NCBI GenBank assembly: GCA_017395105.1
Contig: JAFPWD010000006.1
Coordinates: 1-35,104, forward strand
Reading direction: 5' to 3'
From: Clostridia bacterium
GTDB taxonomy: Bacteria; Bacillota; Clostridia; Christensenellales; CAG-138
DNA length: 35,104 nt
Part shown: positions 7,570 through 27,043 of the stretch, piece after piece
Position numbering within the stretch: the first letter of the stretch is position 1
Layout of the letters: each line of letters begins with the position of its first letter
Position numbers and translations under genes: made by a program
Notes under the pieces: model-generated
The model's input: only the letters and a program-made list of their open reading frames with translations
What the model was told of the DNA's origin: nothing
Database searches by the model: none

Positions 7570-7609
7570 CTTCAAGCGGAGGAGCAAAACCCCTCCGCTT
7601 GAAGCTTTT
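7570..7609. terminator. intrinsic terminator after the symporter gene
   Basis: A 13-bp perfect stem, CTTCAAGCGGAGG (7570-7582) with CCTCCGCTTGAAG (7592-7604), 9-base loop, then CTTTT. It begins 17 bases after the symporter stop. It is also the first unit of the tandem array that follows. Confidence 0.9.
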
Positions 7610-7789
7610 AAAGCATCTTCCGGAGGAGCAAAGCCCCTCCGCTTGAAGCTTTTAAAGCATCTTCCGGAGAGCAAAGCCCCTCCGCTTGAAGCTTTTAAAG
7701 CATCTTCCGGAGAGCAAAGCCCCTCCGCTTGAAGCTTTTAAAGCATCTTCCGGAGAGCCAAGCCACTCCGCCTGAAGCCTTTAAAGCAT
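7570..7789. repeat. tandem array of a 43/44-bp terminator-derived unit, five copies
   Basis: After the full terminator, four more units begin at 7617, 7661, 7704 and 7747 (44, 43, 43 and 43 bases). Each starts CTTCCGGAG and ends CTTTTAAAGCAT, the last copy having diverged. The later units keep only a 5-6 bp version of the stem (CGGAG with CTCCG). The same TTAAAGCATCTTC tail is found at 8414-8426, next to the terminator at 8375, where it is the 3' end of the small minus-strand gene. The array therefore looks like amplified copies of a gene end plus terminator. Confidence 0.9.
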
Positions 7790-17511: not shown

Positions 17512-17610
17512 AAACCGCTTTTTTGCGCCCGCCCGCCGCACTTCCGCTCGCTTCGCGATACTTCCGCGCGGCGGCAACCGGCAGCGTTGAAGAAAGCTGC
17601 GAAGCGGTTT
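17512..17610. repeat. nested inverted repeats between divergent promoters
   Basis: AAACCGCTT (17512-17520) pairs with AAGCGGTTT (17602-17610), and inside it CCGCCGC (17533-17539) pairs with GCGGCGG (17568-17574). The enclosed DNA is GC-rich. The structure sits between the -35 elements of the flavoprotein and LRR-Roc-COR-HNH promoters and could be a cruciform or the remains of an insertion. Confidence 0.5.
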
Positions 17611-17644
17611 TAAGAAGAAAGCACCCACATATCCTGTCCGAAGC

Positions 17645-17673
17645 TTTACAGAAGAGGACGTATATTGTATAAT
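17645..17673 (+). promoter_or_regulatory. promoter for the LRR-Roc-COR-HNH gene
   Basis: -35 TTTACA (17645-17650), 17 bases, -10 TATAAT (17668-17673). The expected leader is about 47 bases. No operator is obvious. Confidence 0.85.
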
Positions 17674-17726
17674 GAAAAAGCATAACGCCGAGCGATAAAC
17701 GCAAAGGAGTAAAGGGGGCGCGGAGA

Positions 17727-20726
17727 ATGAAAAACTTGGGGCTCGAAAATCAAGTATTGAATTTGCTGCAGAGGATCGATAATGGCTATAAGCCGACCGA
17801 TGAGGAAAAGAGCGTGCTTGGATCATGCCCAGTACTTGATCTCAGCGGCACGAAAATCACCGAGCTGCCGGATTCGATCGGGCAGCTTGGCGCACTTGAA
17901 GAGCTTGATCTCAGCGACACGGAAATCACCGAGCTGCCGGATTCGATCGGGCAGCTTGGCGCACTTAAATGGCTTTATCTCAGCGACACGAAAATCACCG
18001 AGCTGCCAGATTCGATCGGGCAGCTTGGCGCACTTGAATGGCTTGATTTCAGCGGCACGAGTATCACCGAGCTGCCGGATTCGATCGGGCAGCTTGGCGC
18101 ACTTGAAGCGCTTTATCTCAGCGACACGAAAATCACTGAGCTGCCGGATTCGATCGGGCAGCTTAGCGCACTTAAAAGGCTTGATCTCAGCGACACGAAA
18201 ATCACCGAGCTGCCGGATTCGATCGGGCAGCTTGGCGCACTTGAAACGCTTTATCTCAGCGGCACGAAAATCACCGAGCTGCCGGATTCGATCGGGCAGC
18301 TTGGCGCACTTGAAACGCTTTATCTCAGCGGCACGAATATCACCGAGCTGCCGGATTCGATCGGGCAGCTTGGCGCACTTATATGGCTTGATCTCGCCGG
18401 CATGAGTATCACCGAGCTGCCGGATTCGATCGGGCAGCTTGGCGCACTTAAAGCGCTTGATCTCAGCGACACGAAAATCACCGAGCTGCCGGATTCGATT
18501 TGGCAGCTTAGCGCACTTATATGGCTTGATCTCGCCGGCATGAGTATCACCGAGCTGCCGGATTCGATCGGAAGCCTTTCAAAGCTGCAACTGCTTAATC
18601 TTTCGGATCTGAAGCTAAAGCGGATACCGGAATCGCTTACAAAGCTCGGTCTTAAATTCGTTGATTTTGGCTTTTTCTCTCTTGGGAATTCCGGCATCAA
18701 TCTTCATAATACGGTTCTTTTGGAGCAAAAAATTTCCGTCTTTCTTGAATCGCCGCATTTGATATCAAGTCTTTATAATAAATGCGAGGAAGAGGCCTGC
18801 CGCGAATGCAAGGTCATCTTTCTCGGCGATGGCGGCTGGGGCAAGAGCTTCACCATTGCCCGCCTTGAGAACGACGGCAAAAAGGAGAACTATAAAACGA
18901 ACACCACCCACGGCGTAAAGATATCCGATTATAAAGCCCCCGATAGGGATTACGCCATCCATTTCTGGGATTTCGGCGGGCAGGAGATACAGCATTCCAT
19001 GCACCGCTGCTTTCTGACCGATGATACCTGCTATGTGGTCACCATTCGATCAAGGGAAACGAACGGAACGGAAAGAGCGCGCTACTGGCTCAGAAATATC
19101 GCGGCATATGCGCCAAGCTGCCCCGTTCTGCTCTATATCAACTGCTGGGAAAACGACTTTGAAATGAGCGGGCTCGATAAAACGAAGCTCAAAAATGAAT
19201 TTCCGAATATCAGGGATATCGTTTTATGCTCCGCAATGGAGGCGGAAGCGGAGGAATTCAACGAAAAGGTTGCGGGAAGCATCGTCAAGATGGTGGATGC
19301 TTCCGGCTACTGCGCAAAGAAGGTTCCCTACCGCTGGATGTATGCGGCGAATGCGATCCGCGAGGAGAATGAAAAATACCTGACCAAGCAGCGCTATCAC
19401 GATATCTGCCGCCAAAAAGGCATAGAGGAGCATCTTGCTCCCGATCTATTGACCTTTTTCAACAATACCGGCGTTTGCTTCAGCTATCATATGGATGCAA
19501 ACAGGCAGGAGCTTGAAGATTATATGCTGCTTGATCCCGTTTGGCTCACAAACGCGGTCTATGCCGTTATATTAGAGGGCAGGCGAAGTGCGCAAAAAGG
19601 CTGGATAAATAAAGAAGAGATGGAGGATATCCTTTGCAATGAAACGAGGGAGGACAAGCTGAAGCTGCGAGTGGATGAGGGGCTGCTTTATGAGCCCGAC
19701 GAGCTTCCGTTCATTATCAGGGTCGCCGCCGCGCATGAGCTTTGCTTCCAACGTGATGAATCGAAAAAAGAGGTGTTCTTTCCGGCGCTTTGCGAAAACG
19801 ATTCCCCCGAAGAAGCGCTTGGAAATTTCGATGCCTACAGCGAGCATTCGGAGTATCGCTTCAAATATGAGTTTTTGCCGGACAGCGTTGTGCATAAGCT
19901 GATGATACGCTTCCTTAAAAAGGATATTGCGGTCAATGACTGCTGGCTGAAGGGCATGGTTTTGGGTGCGCTTGGCTATTATAAAGTAATAGTTTCAATA
20001 GAGGACGATAAGCTGCTAAAGCTCGATCTGTATTCCACTTCCGATCGCTCCGCAAGCGAGCTGTTTCAAATTATCAGGGACGAGATACTCTCCGTAAACG
20101 ATGACATGAGCCGAAGCGCCGAGGAATACATTGCGGCAGGCAAAAGCGAGCTTTCCGTGGCGGAATTGGTTGACGATTACCGTAAAAACGCGGCTAAAGC
20201 ATGCGCCAAGATCGGCGGAGCGAATGATCCCTTCGATCTTCTAAGCAGCTTTTTTGATATTTTTGAGCTTGCCCGCCTTTATACGGCTGACGGGAAGCTT
20301 AAAACGTATCGGAATAGATTTCATAAGTGTAGGCAGAATGAAAAACCTTTGAGGGATGCGCTGCATGAAGCCTATGGTGGCGAATGTAGATACTGCGGCA
20401 GTGCGCTTGATCGAAACACCATGGAGGTTGAGCATATAATCCTCAAAGAGTGGGAAGAAAGGCTCAAAATGACCGATGATGCAACAAAGCGATACTTGTA
20501 TCGCCTTGAGAAACAGGGCTTTGATTTGAACGATCCGGATTATATTGAAAACTATCTTATCGCATGCAAGCCCTGCAATATAAAGAAAAGCAATGAGATA
20601 CGCGATGCCATAATGCTGAATGAATACTTTGCTTATGCTCTGAAGCATACGCCTAAAGTGCTTGAATTGATGCCTAAATATAAAATGATGCGCAGTGGCA
20701 AGTCCTTTGATGATGCGAAGGAATGA
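17727..20726 (+). CDS. LRR-Roc-COR protein with C-terminal HNH nuclease domain
   Basis: The protein has 999 residues. Order: helical lead (1-36); eleven 23-residue leucine-rich repeats (37-289) plus a degenerate one; a Ras-like Roc GTPase with P-loop GDGGWGKS (367-374), THGV switch I and DFGGQE (415-420) switch II; the usual NKxD motif is replaced by NCWEND (472-477); then a COR-like region (about 530-800); then a helical link and an HNH endonuclease: CRYC (C887, C890), VEHI with H903, ENYL, and CKPCN (C947, C950) plus KKSN. Roco proteins are LRR-gated GTPase dimers; HNH domains cut nucleic acid with one metal ion. Inference: ligand binding by the LRRs switches Roc and frees the nuclease, as in a one-gene defence or abortive-infection device. 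It has its own promoter and terminator, no partner gene, and a poor GGAG site before the ATG. Cytoplasmic. Confidence 0.88.
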   Translation: MKNLGLENQVLNLLQRIDNGYKPTDEEKSVLGSCPVLDLSGTKITELPDSIGQLGALEELDLSDTEITELPDSIGQLGALKWLYLSDTKITELPDSIGQLGALEWLDFSGTSITELPDSIGQLGALEALYLSDTKITELPDSIGQLSALKRLDLSDTKITELPDSIGQLGALETLYLSGTKITELPDSIGQLGALETLYLSGTNITELPDSIGQLGALIWLDLAGMSITELPDSIGQLGALKALDLSDTKITELPDSIWQLSALIWLDLAGMSITELPDSIGSLSKLQLLNLSDLKLKRIPESLTKLGLKFVDFGFFSLGNSGINLHNTVLLEQKISVFLESPHLISSLYNKCEEEACRECKVIFLGDGGWGKSFTIARLENDGKKENYKTNTTHGVKISDYKAPDRDYAIHFWDFGGQEIQHSMHRCFLTDDTCYVVTIRSRETNGTERARYWLRNIAAYAPSCPVLLYINCWENDFEMSGLDKTKLKNEFPNIRDIVLCSAMEAEAEEFNEKVAGSIVKMVDASGYCAKKVPYRWMYAANAIREENEKYLTKQRYHDICRQKGIEEHLAPDLLTFFNNTGVCFSYHMDANRQELEDYMLLDPVWLTNAVYAVILEGRRSAQKGWINKEEMEDILCNETREDKLKLRVDEGLLYEPDELPFIIRVAAAHELCFQRDESKKEVFFPALCENDSPEEALGNFDAYSEHSEYRFKYEFLPDSVVHKLMIRFLKKDIAVNDCWLKGMVLGALGYYKVIVSIEDDKLLKLDLYSTSDRSASELFQIIRDEILSVNDDMSRSAEEYIAAGKSELSVAELVDDYRKNAAKACAKIGGANDPFDLLSSFFDIFELARLYTADGKLKTYRNRFHKCRQNEKPLRDALHEAYGGECRYCGSALDRNTMEVEHIILKEWEERLKMTDDATKRYLYRLEKQGFDLNDPDYIENYLIACKPCNIKKSNEIRDAIMLNEYFAYALKHTPKVLELMPKYKMMRSGKSFDDAKE
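17835..18593 (+). repeat. 69-bp tandem repeats encoding the LRR domain
   Basis: Eleven head-to-tail 69-bp units. The part coding ATCACCGAGCTGCCGGATTC and the following CGATCGGGCAGCTTGGCGCA is almost invariant, while the six to eight codons between one CTT and the next ATCACC vary (GAA/AAA/ATA, GAG/TGG/GCG/AGG/ACG, GAT/TAT, AGC/GCC, GAC/GGC, ACG/ATG, AAA/GAA/AGT/AAT). Identity at silent sites shows recent expansion or homogenisation. Confidence 0.95.
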
Positions 20727-20763
20727 GCCGAAATGAAGGTATCGGGCTTAAATGAATGAATAT

Positions 20764-20791
20764 GGGGTCGGCTTTCCCACCGACCCCTTTT
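20764..20791. terminator. terminator between the LRR-Roc-COR-HNH and alcohol dehydrogenase genes
   Basis: GGGGTCGG (20764-20771) with CCGACCCC (20780-20787), 8-base loop, then TTTT. It lies between two converging genes. Confidence 0.88.
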
Positions 20792-20819
20792 GATCATCCT
20801 TTTGCTGAACCGCCGCTTT

Positions 20820-26002: not shown

Positions 26003-27043
26003 TTATTTCAGCTTCTTTTTCAGCCGCTCGATCTTGCGAACAACGGAATCCCGTGTTTCGCCGCTCGTAACGCCCCAATCCTCCCTCAGGATCTCAAGCT
26101 CCGTTTCATGCGCGGCTATCGCGCCCTTAATATCGCCGTTCAGCTCAGAGAATTGAGCAAGGGTCATATAGCAGTCGGTGAAGCGCGGGCGCTTTCCGTC
26201 GTTGTTCTGAGCGGCGATGGCTTTTTTGGCATAGTCAATGGCTCTTGCGTAATCGCCGTCCATCGCGGCAAATTCGCCTATCGACAGCAGCGCCATCCAT
26301 TCATTCGGGAAATCGCGCTCAAGCTCACGGAGCGTTTCGCGGGCGGCCTCCCTTTCGCCATTGTACCAGTGAAGCTGCGCTTTGCAGAGCGGGGCGCGGA
26401 AGGTGCTGTCCGCCTTTTCAAGCCCCTTGAGCGCTTCATCGGCTTCCTTGAGGCGGTAGTCGTCCAGCAGGTTGTCGAGAAGCCACATCCAGCCGCGGCG
26501 ATCCTCGGGATGCTTCTCGGTGAAGTCCTTGAGATACTCTATCAGCATATAGTGGTTTCGCATGCACCAATCGGAAACGCGACCCTCCATGCCTTCGTTG
26601 AGCTCCTGAAGCGCACCGTCGCAGGTGTGGTCCGCTTCAAGCGCCGCTTTTGCGCTCTCCGCCGCCCTTTCGTGATACCTGCCTGCAAGGATATTATACA
26701 TTTCCGCCTTCAGCCTATGGCAATCCGCAACGCGGTAGGATGAGGCGATCTTGGCATCGATCCATTTCCCGGCGCGCTCGATATCCTGCTCGGTGAGATC
26801 GCGCTTTGCCCAGATCATGTTTTGGATGCGCTCGTATTCCTTGTCGTCGTTTATTGAGAAAAGCTCGTCGATGGTAACGCCGAAATAGACCGCAAGCTCG
26901 GGAAGCAGGCTGATATCGGGCAGCGCCGCGCCCGTTTCCCATTTGCTGACCGCCTGCGCGGAAACGCCCATCGCCTCCGCGAGCTTTTCCTGCTTAACGC
27001 CCTTTTGGGTGCGAAGCTGCTTTATCTTGTTTGAAAGTTCCAT
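26003..27043 (-). CDS. XRE-family transcriptional regulator with TPR-like C-terminal domain
   Basis: The protein has 346 residues. Residues 5-62 form a Cro/cI-type HTH (IKQLRTQKGVKQEKLAEAMGVSAQAVSKWETGAALPDISLL, read in two parts), with the SAQAVSKWE recognition helix well kept. From about 75 the chain is all helical, with tetratricopeptide-like units such as DDYRLKEADEALKGLEKA, GEREAARETLRELERDFP, GDYARAIDYAKKAI and GDIKGAIAAHETELEIL. This two-part layout is that of peptide-sensing or partner-sensing regulators (RRNPP-like) and of many Clostridia regulators of unknown ligand. GGAG precedes the ATG. The target is unknown; a CGGTACCG palindrome (near 27070) in its own upstream region may be an autoregulatory site. 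Confidence 0.88.
   Translation of the reverse strand: MELSNKIKQLRTQKGVKQEKLAEAMGVSAQAVSKWETGAALPDISLLPELAVYFGVTIDELFSINDDKEYERIQNMIWAKRDLTEQDIERAGKWIDAKIASSYRVADCHRLKAEMYNILAGRYHERAAESAKAALEADHTCDGALQELNEGMEGRVSDWCMRNHYMLIEYLKDFTEKHPEDRRGWMWLLDNLLDDYRLKEADEALKGLEKADSTFRAPLCKAQLHWYNGEREAARETLRELERDFPNEWMALLSIGEFAAMDGDYARAIDYAKKAIAAQNNDGKRPRFTDCYMTLAQFSELNGDIKGAIAAHETELEILREDWGVTSGETRDSVVRKIERLKKKLK

What the first reader, a model, noticed from the sequence alone, without database searches (positions are those of the whole stretch)
17727..20726. One-gene LRR sensor, Roc GTPase switch and HNH nuclease
Directly seen: eleven LRRs, a Roc-type P-loop and DFGGQE, a COR-length middle, and an HNH domain with both CxxC pairs, the VEHI histidine and ENYL. 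Known: Roco proteins are LRR-gated GTPases, and HNH domains are common effectors in phage-defence proteins. Inferred: the protein is a self-contained immune or suicide device in which the GTPase replaces the STAND ATPase used by Avs-type systems. The Roc NKxD motif is replaced by NCWEND, so guanine specificity may be altered. The gene has its own promoter and terminator and no partner.
Basis: partly seen in the sequence, partly recalled or inferred. Interest (0 to 1): 0.88.

Follow-up and report, generated by a model that had tools for sequence, protein, structure and literature searches.

The report
LRR-GTPase receptor with nuclease tail
A single bacterial gene joins a repeat-built sensor, a molecular switch related to the human Parkinson's protein LRRK2, and a nuclease tail; it looks like an untested immune receptor whose sensing surface is evolving fast.

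Summary
The 999-aa ORF 17727-20726 holds 11 near-identical 23-aa LRRs, Roc, COR-A, COR-B and a C-terminal HNH domain (PHROG HNH, E 6e-13). It stands alone, with promoter- and terminator-like sites. A same-genus genome with 95-96% identical flanking proteins has 52 bp where the window has 3,245. The class is not new: Kaur et al. 2021 predicted bacterial LRR-(AP-GTPase/Roc)-COR proteins with at least 24 C-terminal domains as counter-invader systems. HNH is not named in the text I read; figure and source data were unavailable. The own genome has three such proteins: two HNH-tailed, one with a sub-threshold TIR-like tail beside a SLATT gene. HNH tails were found in three genomes of one family and form one clade. 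New here: in four recently duplicated Roco LRR arrays, changes on the inferred concave strand are 52 non-synonymous to 2 synonymous, against 12 to 16 in the backbone, suggesting diversifying selection; over all six arrays the excess over neutrality is weaker (p 0.025). Best reading: an NLR-like immune receptor in which ligand binding to the LRR opens the GTP-bound Roco and releases a nuclease.

The parts
17575..20819 (.). Presence/absence segment: 3,245 bp here, 52 bp of other sequence (L039 1431-1482) in a same-genus genome with 95-96% identical flanking proteins; ends read by eye from the aligned sequences
17645..17673 (+). sigma-70-type promoter-like site, TTTACA-17-TATAAT, 11 of 12
   Evidence: consensus match only
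17703..17718 (+). purine-rich ribosome-binding-site-like stretch
   Evidence: read from sequence
17727..20726 (+). LRR-Roc-COR-HNH protein, 999 aa
17835..18571 (+). 69-bp tandem array (10.7 copies) encoding 23-aa LRRs; in the first 10 units the changes in codons 15-23 (inferred concave strand and turn) are 15 non-synonymous, 0 synonymous by the minimum tree
18810..19142 (+). Roc GTPase domain (362-472 by Pfam); P-loop 18825-18848, DFGGQE 18969-18986, NCWE from 19140
19326..19790 (+). COR-A domain (534-688)
19842..20123 (+). COR-B domain (706-799)
20322..20606 (+). HNH nuclease domain, about residues 866-960: C887, C890, H903, N942, C947, C950
20764..20787 (+). intrinsic-terminator-like stem-loop followed by TTTT
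   Evidence: consensus match only

Best explanation
This is a single-gene, NLR-like bacterial immune receptor of the Roco (AP-GTPase-COR) class with an HNH nuclease effector. At rest the LRR folds back on Roc-COR, as in nucleotide-free CtRoco, and the C-terminal HNH is silent. An invader-derived ligand, probably a phage protein, binds the hypervariable concave face of the LRR. This drives Roco to its open GTP state and frees or re-assembles the HNH domain, which cuts nucleic acid (phage and/or host DNA, or tRNA, as I recall for retron-Ec78 PtuB) and stops infection or kills the cell. Shown by sequence: the domains, the conserved HNH signature, different C-terminal domains on the same core, patchiness and the clean indel, and an excess of non-synonymous change on the LRR strand. 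Inferred: immune role, ligand, direction of the switch, nuclease target.
For: (1) Anatomy; solved Roco chains match at 2e-31 to 1.4e-30 (3dpu, 6hlu, 8r4b) and 1.6e-34 (4wnr); HNH 6.1e-13. (2) Different C-terminal domains on one core: in the own genome HNH twice (window, L002) and a TIR-like tail (L003, TIR_2 E 0.0012, under cut-off) with a SLATT/DUF4231 gene directly upstream (1.3e-9 and 3.6e-16); in relatives TIR (L014, 1.1e-13) and others. (3) Sensor: in 4 homogeneous arrays, strand 52 N:2 S against backbone 12 N:16 S, Fisher 8e-8; against neutral expectation p 3e-4. (4) Patchy: 6 of 103 genomes of the family have any match; COR-A at E up to 0.001 in 2 of 398 genomes of the phylum sample, above cut-off in 1, the own genome with 3 copies. 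Empty site in G024. (5) Among PADLOC models the HNH tail is nearest to Septu PtuB in 4 of 4 members, best 8.7e-9 (that library holds defence proteins only). (6) Distant Roco genes on 11 plasmid records: beside BREX (H8), type I R-M genes (H10), inside a Tn7-like element with I-F CRISPR genes (H2), near NACHT genes (H6, H9). (7) In CtRoco a nanobody bound in the LRR horseshoe curvature stabilises the open GTP-state monomer, in which the LRR is rotated about 135 degrees (PMC11052575, passages read).
Against: No functional data. No defence genes recognised near the window gene or, by eye, near L016 and L017. No match in 50,697 phage records and no relative in one pattern-limited scan of viral contigs. 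The two older LRR arrays (L002, L016) have strand pN/pS of 1.1 and 0.9, not above neutrality, and L003 alone is not significant; pooling all six arrays weakens the test against neutrality to p 0.025. The 0.85 identity split was made after seeing the data. The plasmid neighbourhoods have no control, and stretches of unequal length were looked at. NCBIfam puts IscB and Cas9d HNH models ahead of PtuB. The G4 motif is non-canonical, so GTP binding is not certain.
Confidence: 0.55

Rival explanations
1. A selfish single-gene element: the HNH domain acts like a free-standing homing endonuclease that spread the gene, and the LRR-Roc part is a passenger or regulator.
For: Clean single-gene presence/absence between two genes; HNH is a common homing-endonuclease fold (recalled), and phage HNH families match the tail.
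Against: The HNH is one of several tails on an LRR-Roc-COR core; the relatives L002, L016 and L017 sit beside other genes; selection seems to act on the LRR face.
Confidence: 0.08
2. A non-immune intracellular signalling Roco (for example a GTP-level or stress sensor) whose HNH tail acts on the cell's own nucleic acid.
For: The K_M of Roco proteins for GTP lies in the range of cellular GTP, so a GTP-sensor role has been proposed (PMC6337361, passages read); the gene sits among housekeeping-type genes.
Against: Few genomes have it and a syntenic site lacks it, which does not fit a core regulator; concave-face diversification and different effectors fit conflict.
Confidence: 0.17
3. A regulated toxin for conflict with other mobile elements such as plasmids, rather than a phage sensor.
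For: Solitary gene present or absent as a unit; HNH effector; distant relatives on plasmids, two near toxin-antitoxin genes (H1, H7).
Against: No partner or antitoxin-like gene next to it; the long LRR with diversified strand residues suggests a protein ligand.
Confidence: 0.15
4. A decaying or inactive gene kept by chance.
For: Non-canonical NCWE in place of NKxD; sub-threshold Pfam HNH in the window copy.
Against: Intact 999-aa frame with the repeat array in frame; HNH-signature residues invariant in the 4 aligned tails; LRR backbone codons under constraint (pN/pS 0.35).
Confidence: 0.05

Closest known systems
Prokaryotic AP-GTPase (Roc)-COR counter-invader systems predicted by Kaur et al. 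2021 (PMC8195603; section 15 and passages read)
   Same: Fast-evolving N-terminal LRRs, Roc-COR core, variable C-terminal domain, several paralogues with different tails in one genome
   Different: HNH is not among the C-terminal domains named in the text (GT4, TIR, DRHyd, caspase, trypsin, FGS, EADs are); the paper counts at least 24 and I could not see its figure or source data, so HNH may be among them
CtRoco (Chlorobaculum tepidum; PDB 6hlu per PMC11052575, passages read) and the Roco chain 4wnr (Methanosarcina, recalled)
   Same: LRR-Roc-COR order; sequence matches of 1e-30 and 1.6e-34
   Different: The matches end before the HNH; [quoted passage not shown]
Septu / retron-Ec78 PtuB HNH nucleases
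   Same: HNH domain; PADLOC PtuB models match 4 of 4 tails, NCBIfam PtuB 1 of 4
   Different: No PtuA-like ATPase gene beside it; the switch is a Roco GTPase in the same chain; IscB and Cas9d HNH models score better in NCBIfam
Bacterial NLR-like STAND systems (Avs, bNACHT; recalled)
   Same: Logic of repeat sensor, NTPase switch and effector in one chain
   Different: Ras/Roc-clade GTPase instead of a STAND ATPase; sensor N-terminal and effector C-terminal
Brown-algal ROCO candidate immune receptors (Teng et al. 2024, PMC11378527, passages read)
   Same: 23-aa LRR units in a ROCO protein, positive selection at concave-face positions
   Different: There by exon shuffling and splicing; here one bacterial reading frame with a DNA tandem array

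Membership tests
Roco (Roc-COR) proteins | Roc GTPase domain followed by COR | tested here: met
   Pfam Roc, COR-A, COR-B all above cut-off
Roco (Roc-COR) proteins | P-loop GxxxxGK[ST] and switch II DxxGQ | tested here: met
   GDGGWGKS and DFGGQE; columns invariant in 10 of 10 rows
Roco (Roc-COR) proteins | NKxD guanine motif | tested here: inconclusive
   NCWE here; NCW[ED] in the 3 HNH rows; NKxD in 5 of 10 rows
Kaur 2021 AP-GTPase counter-invader systems | Fast-evolving N-terminal LRRs | tested here: met
   between repeats: strand pN 0.27, pS 0.002; backbone pN/pS 0.35
Kaur 2021 AP-GTPase counter-invader systems | Variable C-terminal domain, different among paralogues of one genome | tested here: met
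   HNH, HNH and a sub-threshold TIR-like tail in the own genome
Kaur 2021 AP-GTPase counter-invader systems | Acts against invaders | not testable with these tools
   needs phage assays; no paper with such a test seen in the listings
HNH endonucleases | HNH signature with Cys pairs, His and Asn | tested here: met
   invariant in 4 of 4; phrog_2118 6.1e-13; Pfam under cut-off for the window copy
HNH endonucleases | beta-beta-alpha metal fold and nuclease activity | not testable with these tools
   structure prediction switched off
Septu (PtuAB) | PtuA ATPase gene beside the HNH gene | tested here: not met
   neighbours are azoreductase-like and Fe-ADH-like genes
STAND / Avs / bNACHT | STAND NTPase domain | tested here: not met
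   no STAND or NACHT model among the 21 Pfam families listed up to E 10
Diversity-generating retroelement target | adenine-directed variation with template repeat and reverse transcriptase | tested here: inconclusive
   10 invariant sites of the unit are A, and 11 of 18 polymorphic sites include A, which speaks against it; I ran no search for a reverse transcriptase

The most novel reading that the evidence does not exclude
A bacterial counterpart of NLR and VLR repertoires built on a LRRK2-like switch: single-gene Roco receptors whose LRR arrays are repeatedly regrown by tandem duplication and then diversified under positive selection at the concave recognition residues, while the C-terminal killing domain (HNH, TIR and others) differs between paralogues. 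The HNH form is a suicide nuclease gated by GTP-driven opening, which would give prokaryotic Roco proteins, kin of LRRK2 and DAPK, an immune function.
Probability: 0.42. Interest if true: 0.85.

Novelty: new variant of a known kind. Interest (0 to 1): 0.62.

Why it matters
The 2019 review of Roco proteins says very little is known about their role in bacteria and archaea (passage), although bacterial Roco proteins are structural models for LRRK2. An immune receptor role would fill that gap and tie LRRK2- and DAPK-type switches to prokaryotic conflict systems, as STAND ATPases already are. The diversified concave residues point to where ligands should bind, and the HNH form has a scorable output (nucleic-acid damage), so sensor, switch and effector can be tested separately.

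Tried and rejected
Structure prediction of Roc-COR-HNH: not accepted, switched off; the HNH was checked by family profiles instead. PDB search with the HNH profile gave 9 rows, all weak (best 8d2k, a Csn1-family CRISPR endonuclease, E 0.031); most are HNH proteins, and the chemosensory protein row looks like chance. Phage records: none. Genome contigs: 51 stretches matched, 2 relatives, whose ORFs are the same as those of G081 and G024 (with 22, 23, 47, 48); exact peptide patterns limit its reach. Class-level profile search: 12 of 391 genomes match; besides the own genome one matches in COR-B (L047, a Roco with another tail) and ten only in the HNH part; I opened three of these loci (L047, L048, L053).

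Diversity-generating retroelement as cause of the LRR variation: disfavoured. Type III effectors (XopAC etc.): LRR-only similarity far below cut-offs; rejected. HERV-K and plant resistance-protein Pfam rows: fall in the repeats, rejected. Defence genes near the window gene: 10 other window genes were scanned with PADLOC, and only one had matches, to regulators with a helix-turn-helix; the two immediate neighbours were scanned with NCBIfam only.

Control for repeat homogenisation: 3 of the 12 other LRR open frames of the own genome that one search lists were scanned with TRF (L090, L091, L092). L090 has no array, L091 only a 12-bp repeat, L092 two 63-bp arrays at 75-76% matches and an 18-bp one; the window array has 89%, L003 92%, L016 87% over 3.6 copies. 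I made no dN/dS control on non-Roco arrays.

Rows left out of the dN/dS test: the 11th, degenerate window unit (with it strand pN/pS is 2.65); L002 four of five units (five: 0.86); L016 the first five units; L003 six of about seven; L012 ten of about twelve; L008 seven of about nine. The pooled test used 4 of 6 arrays (mean identity above 0.85), a split made after seeing them; all six give Fisher 3e-9 and p 0.025 against neutrality. Window alone against neutrality: p 0.034; L003 alone: 0.54.
Full report
Observation. The ORF at 17727-20726 is intact and 999 aa long. Its first third is a 69-bp tandem array with 11 exactly spaced 23-aa LRRs. Then follow Roc (1.7e-18), COR-A (1.9e-24) and COR-B (8.7e-7), all above Pfam cut-offs; solved Roco chains match at 1.6e-34 to 1.4e-30. 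The C-terminal HNH is under Pfam's cut-off for the window copy, but the domain is real: the 4 HNH tails all match phrog_2118, HNH endonuclease (window 6.1e-13, best 4.3e-15), 2 of the 3 other tails pass Pfam's cut-off, and both CxxC pairs, H903 and N942 are invariant in the four.

Setting. The gene stands alone, with an 11-of-12 promoter-like site upstream and a terminator-like stem after it. Of ten other window genes scanned with NCBIfam, eight matched something: Na/Pi symporter-PhoU, IspG, PolC, an acetyltransferase, an azoreductase-like gene, an Fe-alcohol dehydrogenase, thymidine kinase, GalE (the acetyltransferase, azoreductase and alcohol dehydrogenase matches are under the models' cut-offs). 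PADLOC on ten window genes found matches, to helix-turn-helix regulators, in one. In genome G024 the flanking proteins are 95 and 96% identical and adjacent. The DNA matches up to window 17574 and again from 20820; between these G024 has 52 bp where the window has 3,245 bp. So the gene with its own signals is present or absent as one unit. This is one comparison: of the 11 genus genomes searched (own included), only the own one and G024 had both flanks on one contig.

Relatives. In the family, 6 of 103 genomes have any match to the Roc-to-HNH part; in an even sample of the order, 5 of 396, three of them the same genomes again. COR-A gives E up to 0.001 in 2 of 398 phylum genomes and exceeds its cut-off in 1, the own genome, with three copies. 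HNH-tailed members found: the window, L002 in the same genome (55%), G081/L016 (titled a sheep-rumen Clostridia MAG, 47%) and G024/L017 (an uncultured Clostridiales genome, 40%, cut by a contig end). On Roc-COR the three HNH members that hold this region form one group (100/99), next to the own genome's TIR-like protein with moderate support (83/85); 3 of 7 inner branches are unresolved and end branches are long. Other tails: TIR in L014 (1.1e-13), TIR-like in L003 (0.0012, under cut-off) with a SLATT/DUF4231 gene directly upstream, a tail in L047 that matches TIR_2 under cut-off (8.8e-6) and that I would call DUF4062-like from memory, coiled-coil or hydrophobic tails in L008 and L009 by my reading, and tails without a Pfam name in L010 and L015.

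Sensor evolution. In the window's first 10 units, codons 15-23 (the strand and following turn, concave face by general LRR structure) have pN 0.27 and pS 0.002; codons 1-14 have pN 0.018 and pS 0.052. Minimum changes are 15 N:0 S against 2 N:3 S, Fisher 0.009; against neutrality p 0.034. Three other arrays of high internal identity point the same way (L003 7:1 against 4:2, not significant alone; L012, whose own tail is unknown, 16:1 against 5:8; L008 14:0 against 1:3). Pooled: 52:2 against 12:16, Fisher 8e-8, and 2 of 54 synonymous against 0.21 expected, p 3e-4. The repeat consensus differs by eye from gene to gene while units within these four genes are 88-91% identical in DNA, which suggests regrowth of arrays within genes; I did not compute the between-gene figure. 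The two older arrays, L002 and L016, show strand ratios of 1.1 and 0.9 with backbone 0.33 and 0.27. All six pooled: Fisher 3e-9, p 0.025 against neutrality. The contrast of face and backbone is strong; selection beyond neutrality is moderately supported. An adenine-directed signature is not seen. Teng et al. 2024 report positive selection on concave positions of 23-aa LRRs in brown-algal ROCO proteins (passages).

Class context. Kaur et al. 2021 (section 15) describe prokaryotic AP-GTPase-COR proteins with fast-evolving N-terminal LRRs and at least 24 C-terminal domains, predicted as counter-invader systems, with several paralogues in some genomes. The text names GT4, TIR, DRHyd, caspase, trypsin, FGS and EADs, not HNH; I could not see the figure or source data. 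Searches for Roc-COR with HNH and LRR (0 papers), Roco with HNH (3 papers, of which I read passages of two and saw one only in the listing), Roco with anti-phage defence or immunity, Roc-COR with phage, AP-GTPase, prokaryotic Roco and COR domain with phage showed no experiment on a prokaryotic Roco in defence; most papers were seen as listings only, and preprints and most subscription journals are not held. Eleven plasmid records hold distant Roco genes. Five of 11 have, in the stretch I looked at (3 to 8 kb on each side, more for H8), BREX (H8), type I R-M genes (H10), a Tn7-like element with I-F CRISPR genes around the gene (H2), or a NACHT gene (H6, H9); two more have toxin-antitoxin genes (H1, H7); in the other four (H3, H4, H5, H11) I saw none of these. 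There is no control for how often plasmid genes have such neighbours.

Mechanism. In CtRoco the GTP-state opening rotates the LRR by about 135 degrees from Roc-COR, and a nanobody bound in the LRR curvature stabilises the open form (PMC11052575, passages). I infer the same logic: an invader ligand on the diversified concave face favours the GTP-bound open state and so frees the C-terminal HNH. Whether the HNH cuts phage DNA, host DNA or tRNA is open. In PADLOC the nearest models are PtuB (4 of 4 members, best 8.7e-9), but that library holds only defence proteins; in NCBIfam IscB and Cas9d HNH models come first (3 of 4 members each) and PtuB matches 1 of 4. So the tail is an HNH of the broad Cas9/PtuB-like kind, not shown to be a PtuB. 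NCW[ED] is shared by the three HNH members with the acidic position kept; nucleotide specificity needs a binding assay.

Verdict. The sequence observation is right in the details I checked. What is added is evidence that the sensor face is under diversifying selection and that the gene is present or absent as a unit.

Noticed in passing
L003 701-1285 and 1468-4311 (own genome, G000:C13): A third Roco of the same genome ends in a TIR-like domain (under cut-off) and has a SLATT/DUF4231 protein gene directly upstream on the same strand, a possible two-gene system.
   Followed up: partly
L062 3311-6049 (Photobacterium toruni plasmid): A COR-domain protein gene lies between the TniB and TniQ genes of a Tn7-like element with a type I-F Csy2 gene, apparently as cargo.
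   Followed up: no
L072 14611-20174 (Haliscomenobacter hydrossis pHALHY02): A COR-domain protein gene sits between a BREX gene set and a macro-domain plus DUF4433 pair (DarTG-like, recalled).
   Followed up: no
L048 34-1860: An HNH related to the Roco tail (profile E 3.6e-9) lies at the N-terminus of an unrelated 608-aa protein with a weak GmrSD_C match.
   Followed up: partly
L010 (G076:C7): A Roco relative with a long C-terminal extension holding an HD-like YHDIGY stretch (my reading); Pfam names nothing there above cut-off.
   Followed up: partly
window 7577-7789: A 43-bp tandem repeat, 4.9 copies at 96% matches, just after the Na/Pi symporter-PhoU gene; not identified.
   Followed up: no
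window 26003-27043: A minus-strand gene with an N-terminal helix-turn-helix and a weak TPR match in PADLOC regulator models.
   Followed up: no
L091 777-2351 (G000:C16): A secreted-looking LRR protein with a dockerin-like C-terminus (recalled motif) in the same genome.
   Followed up: no
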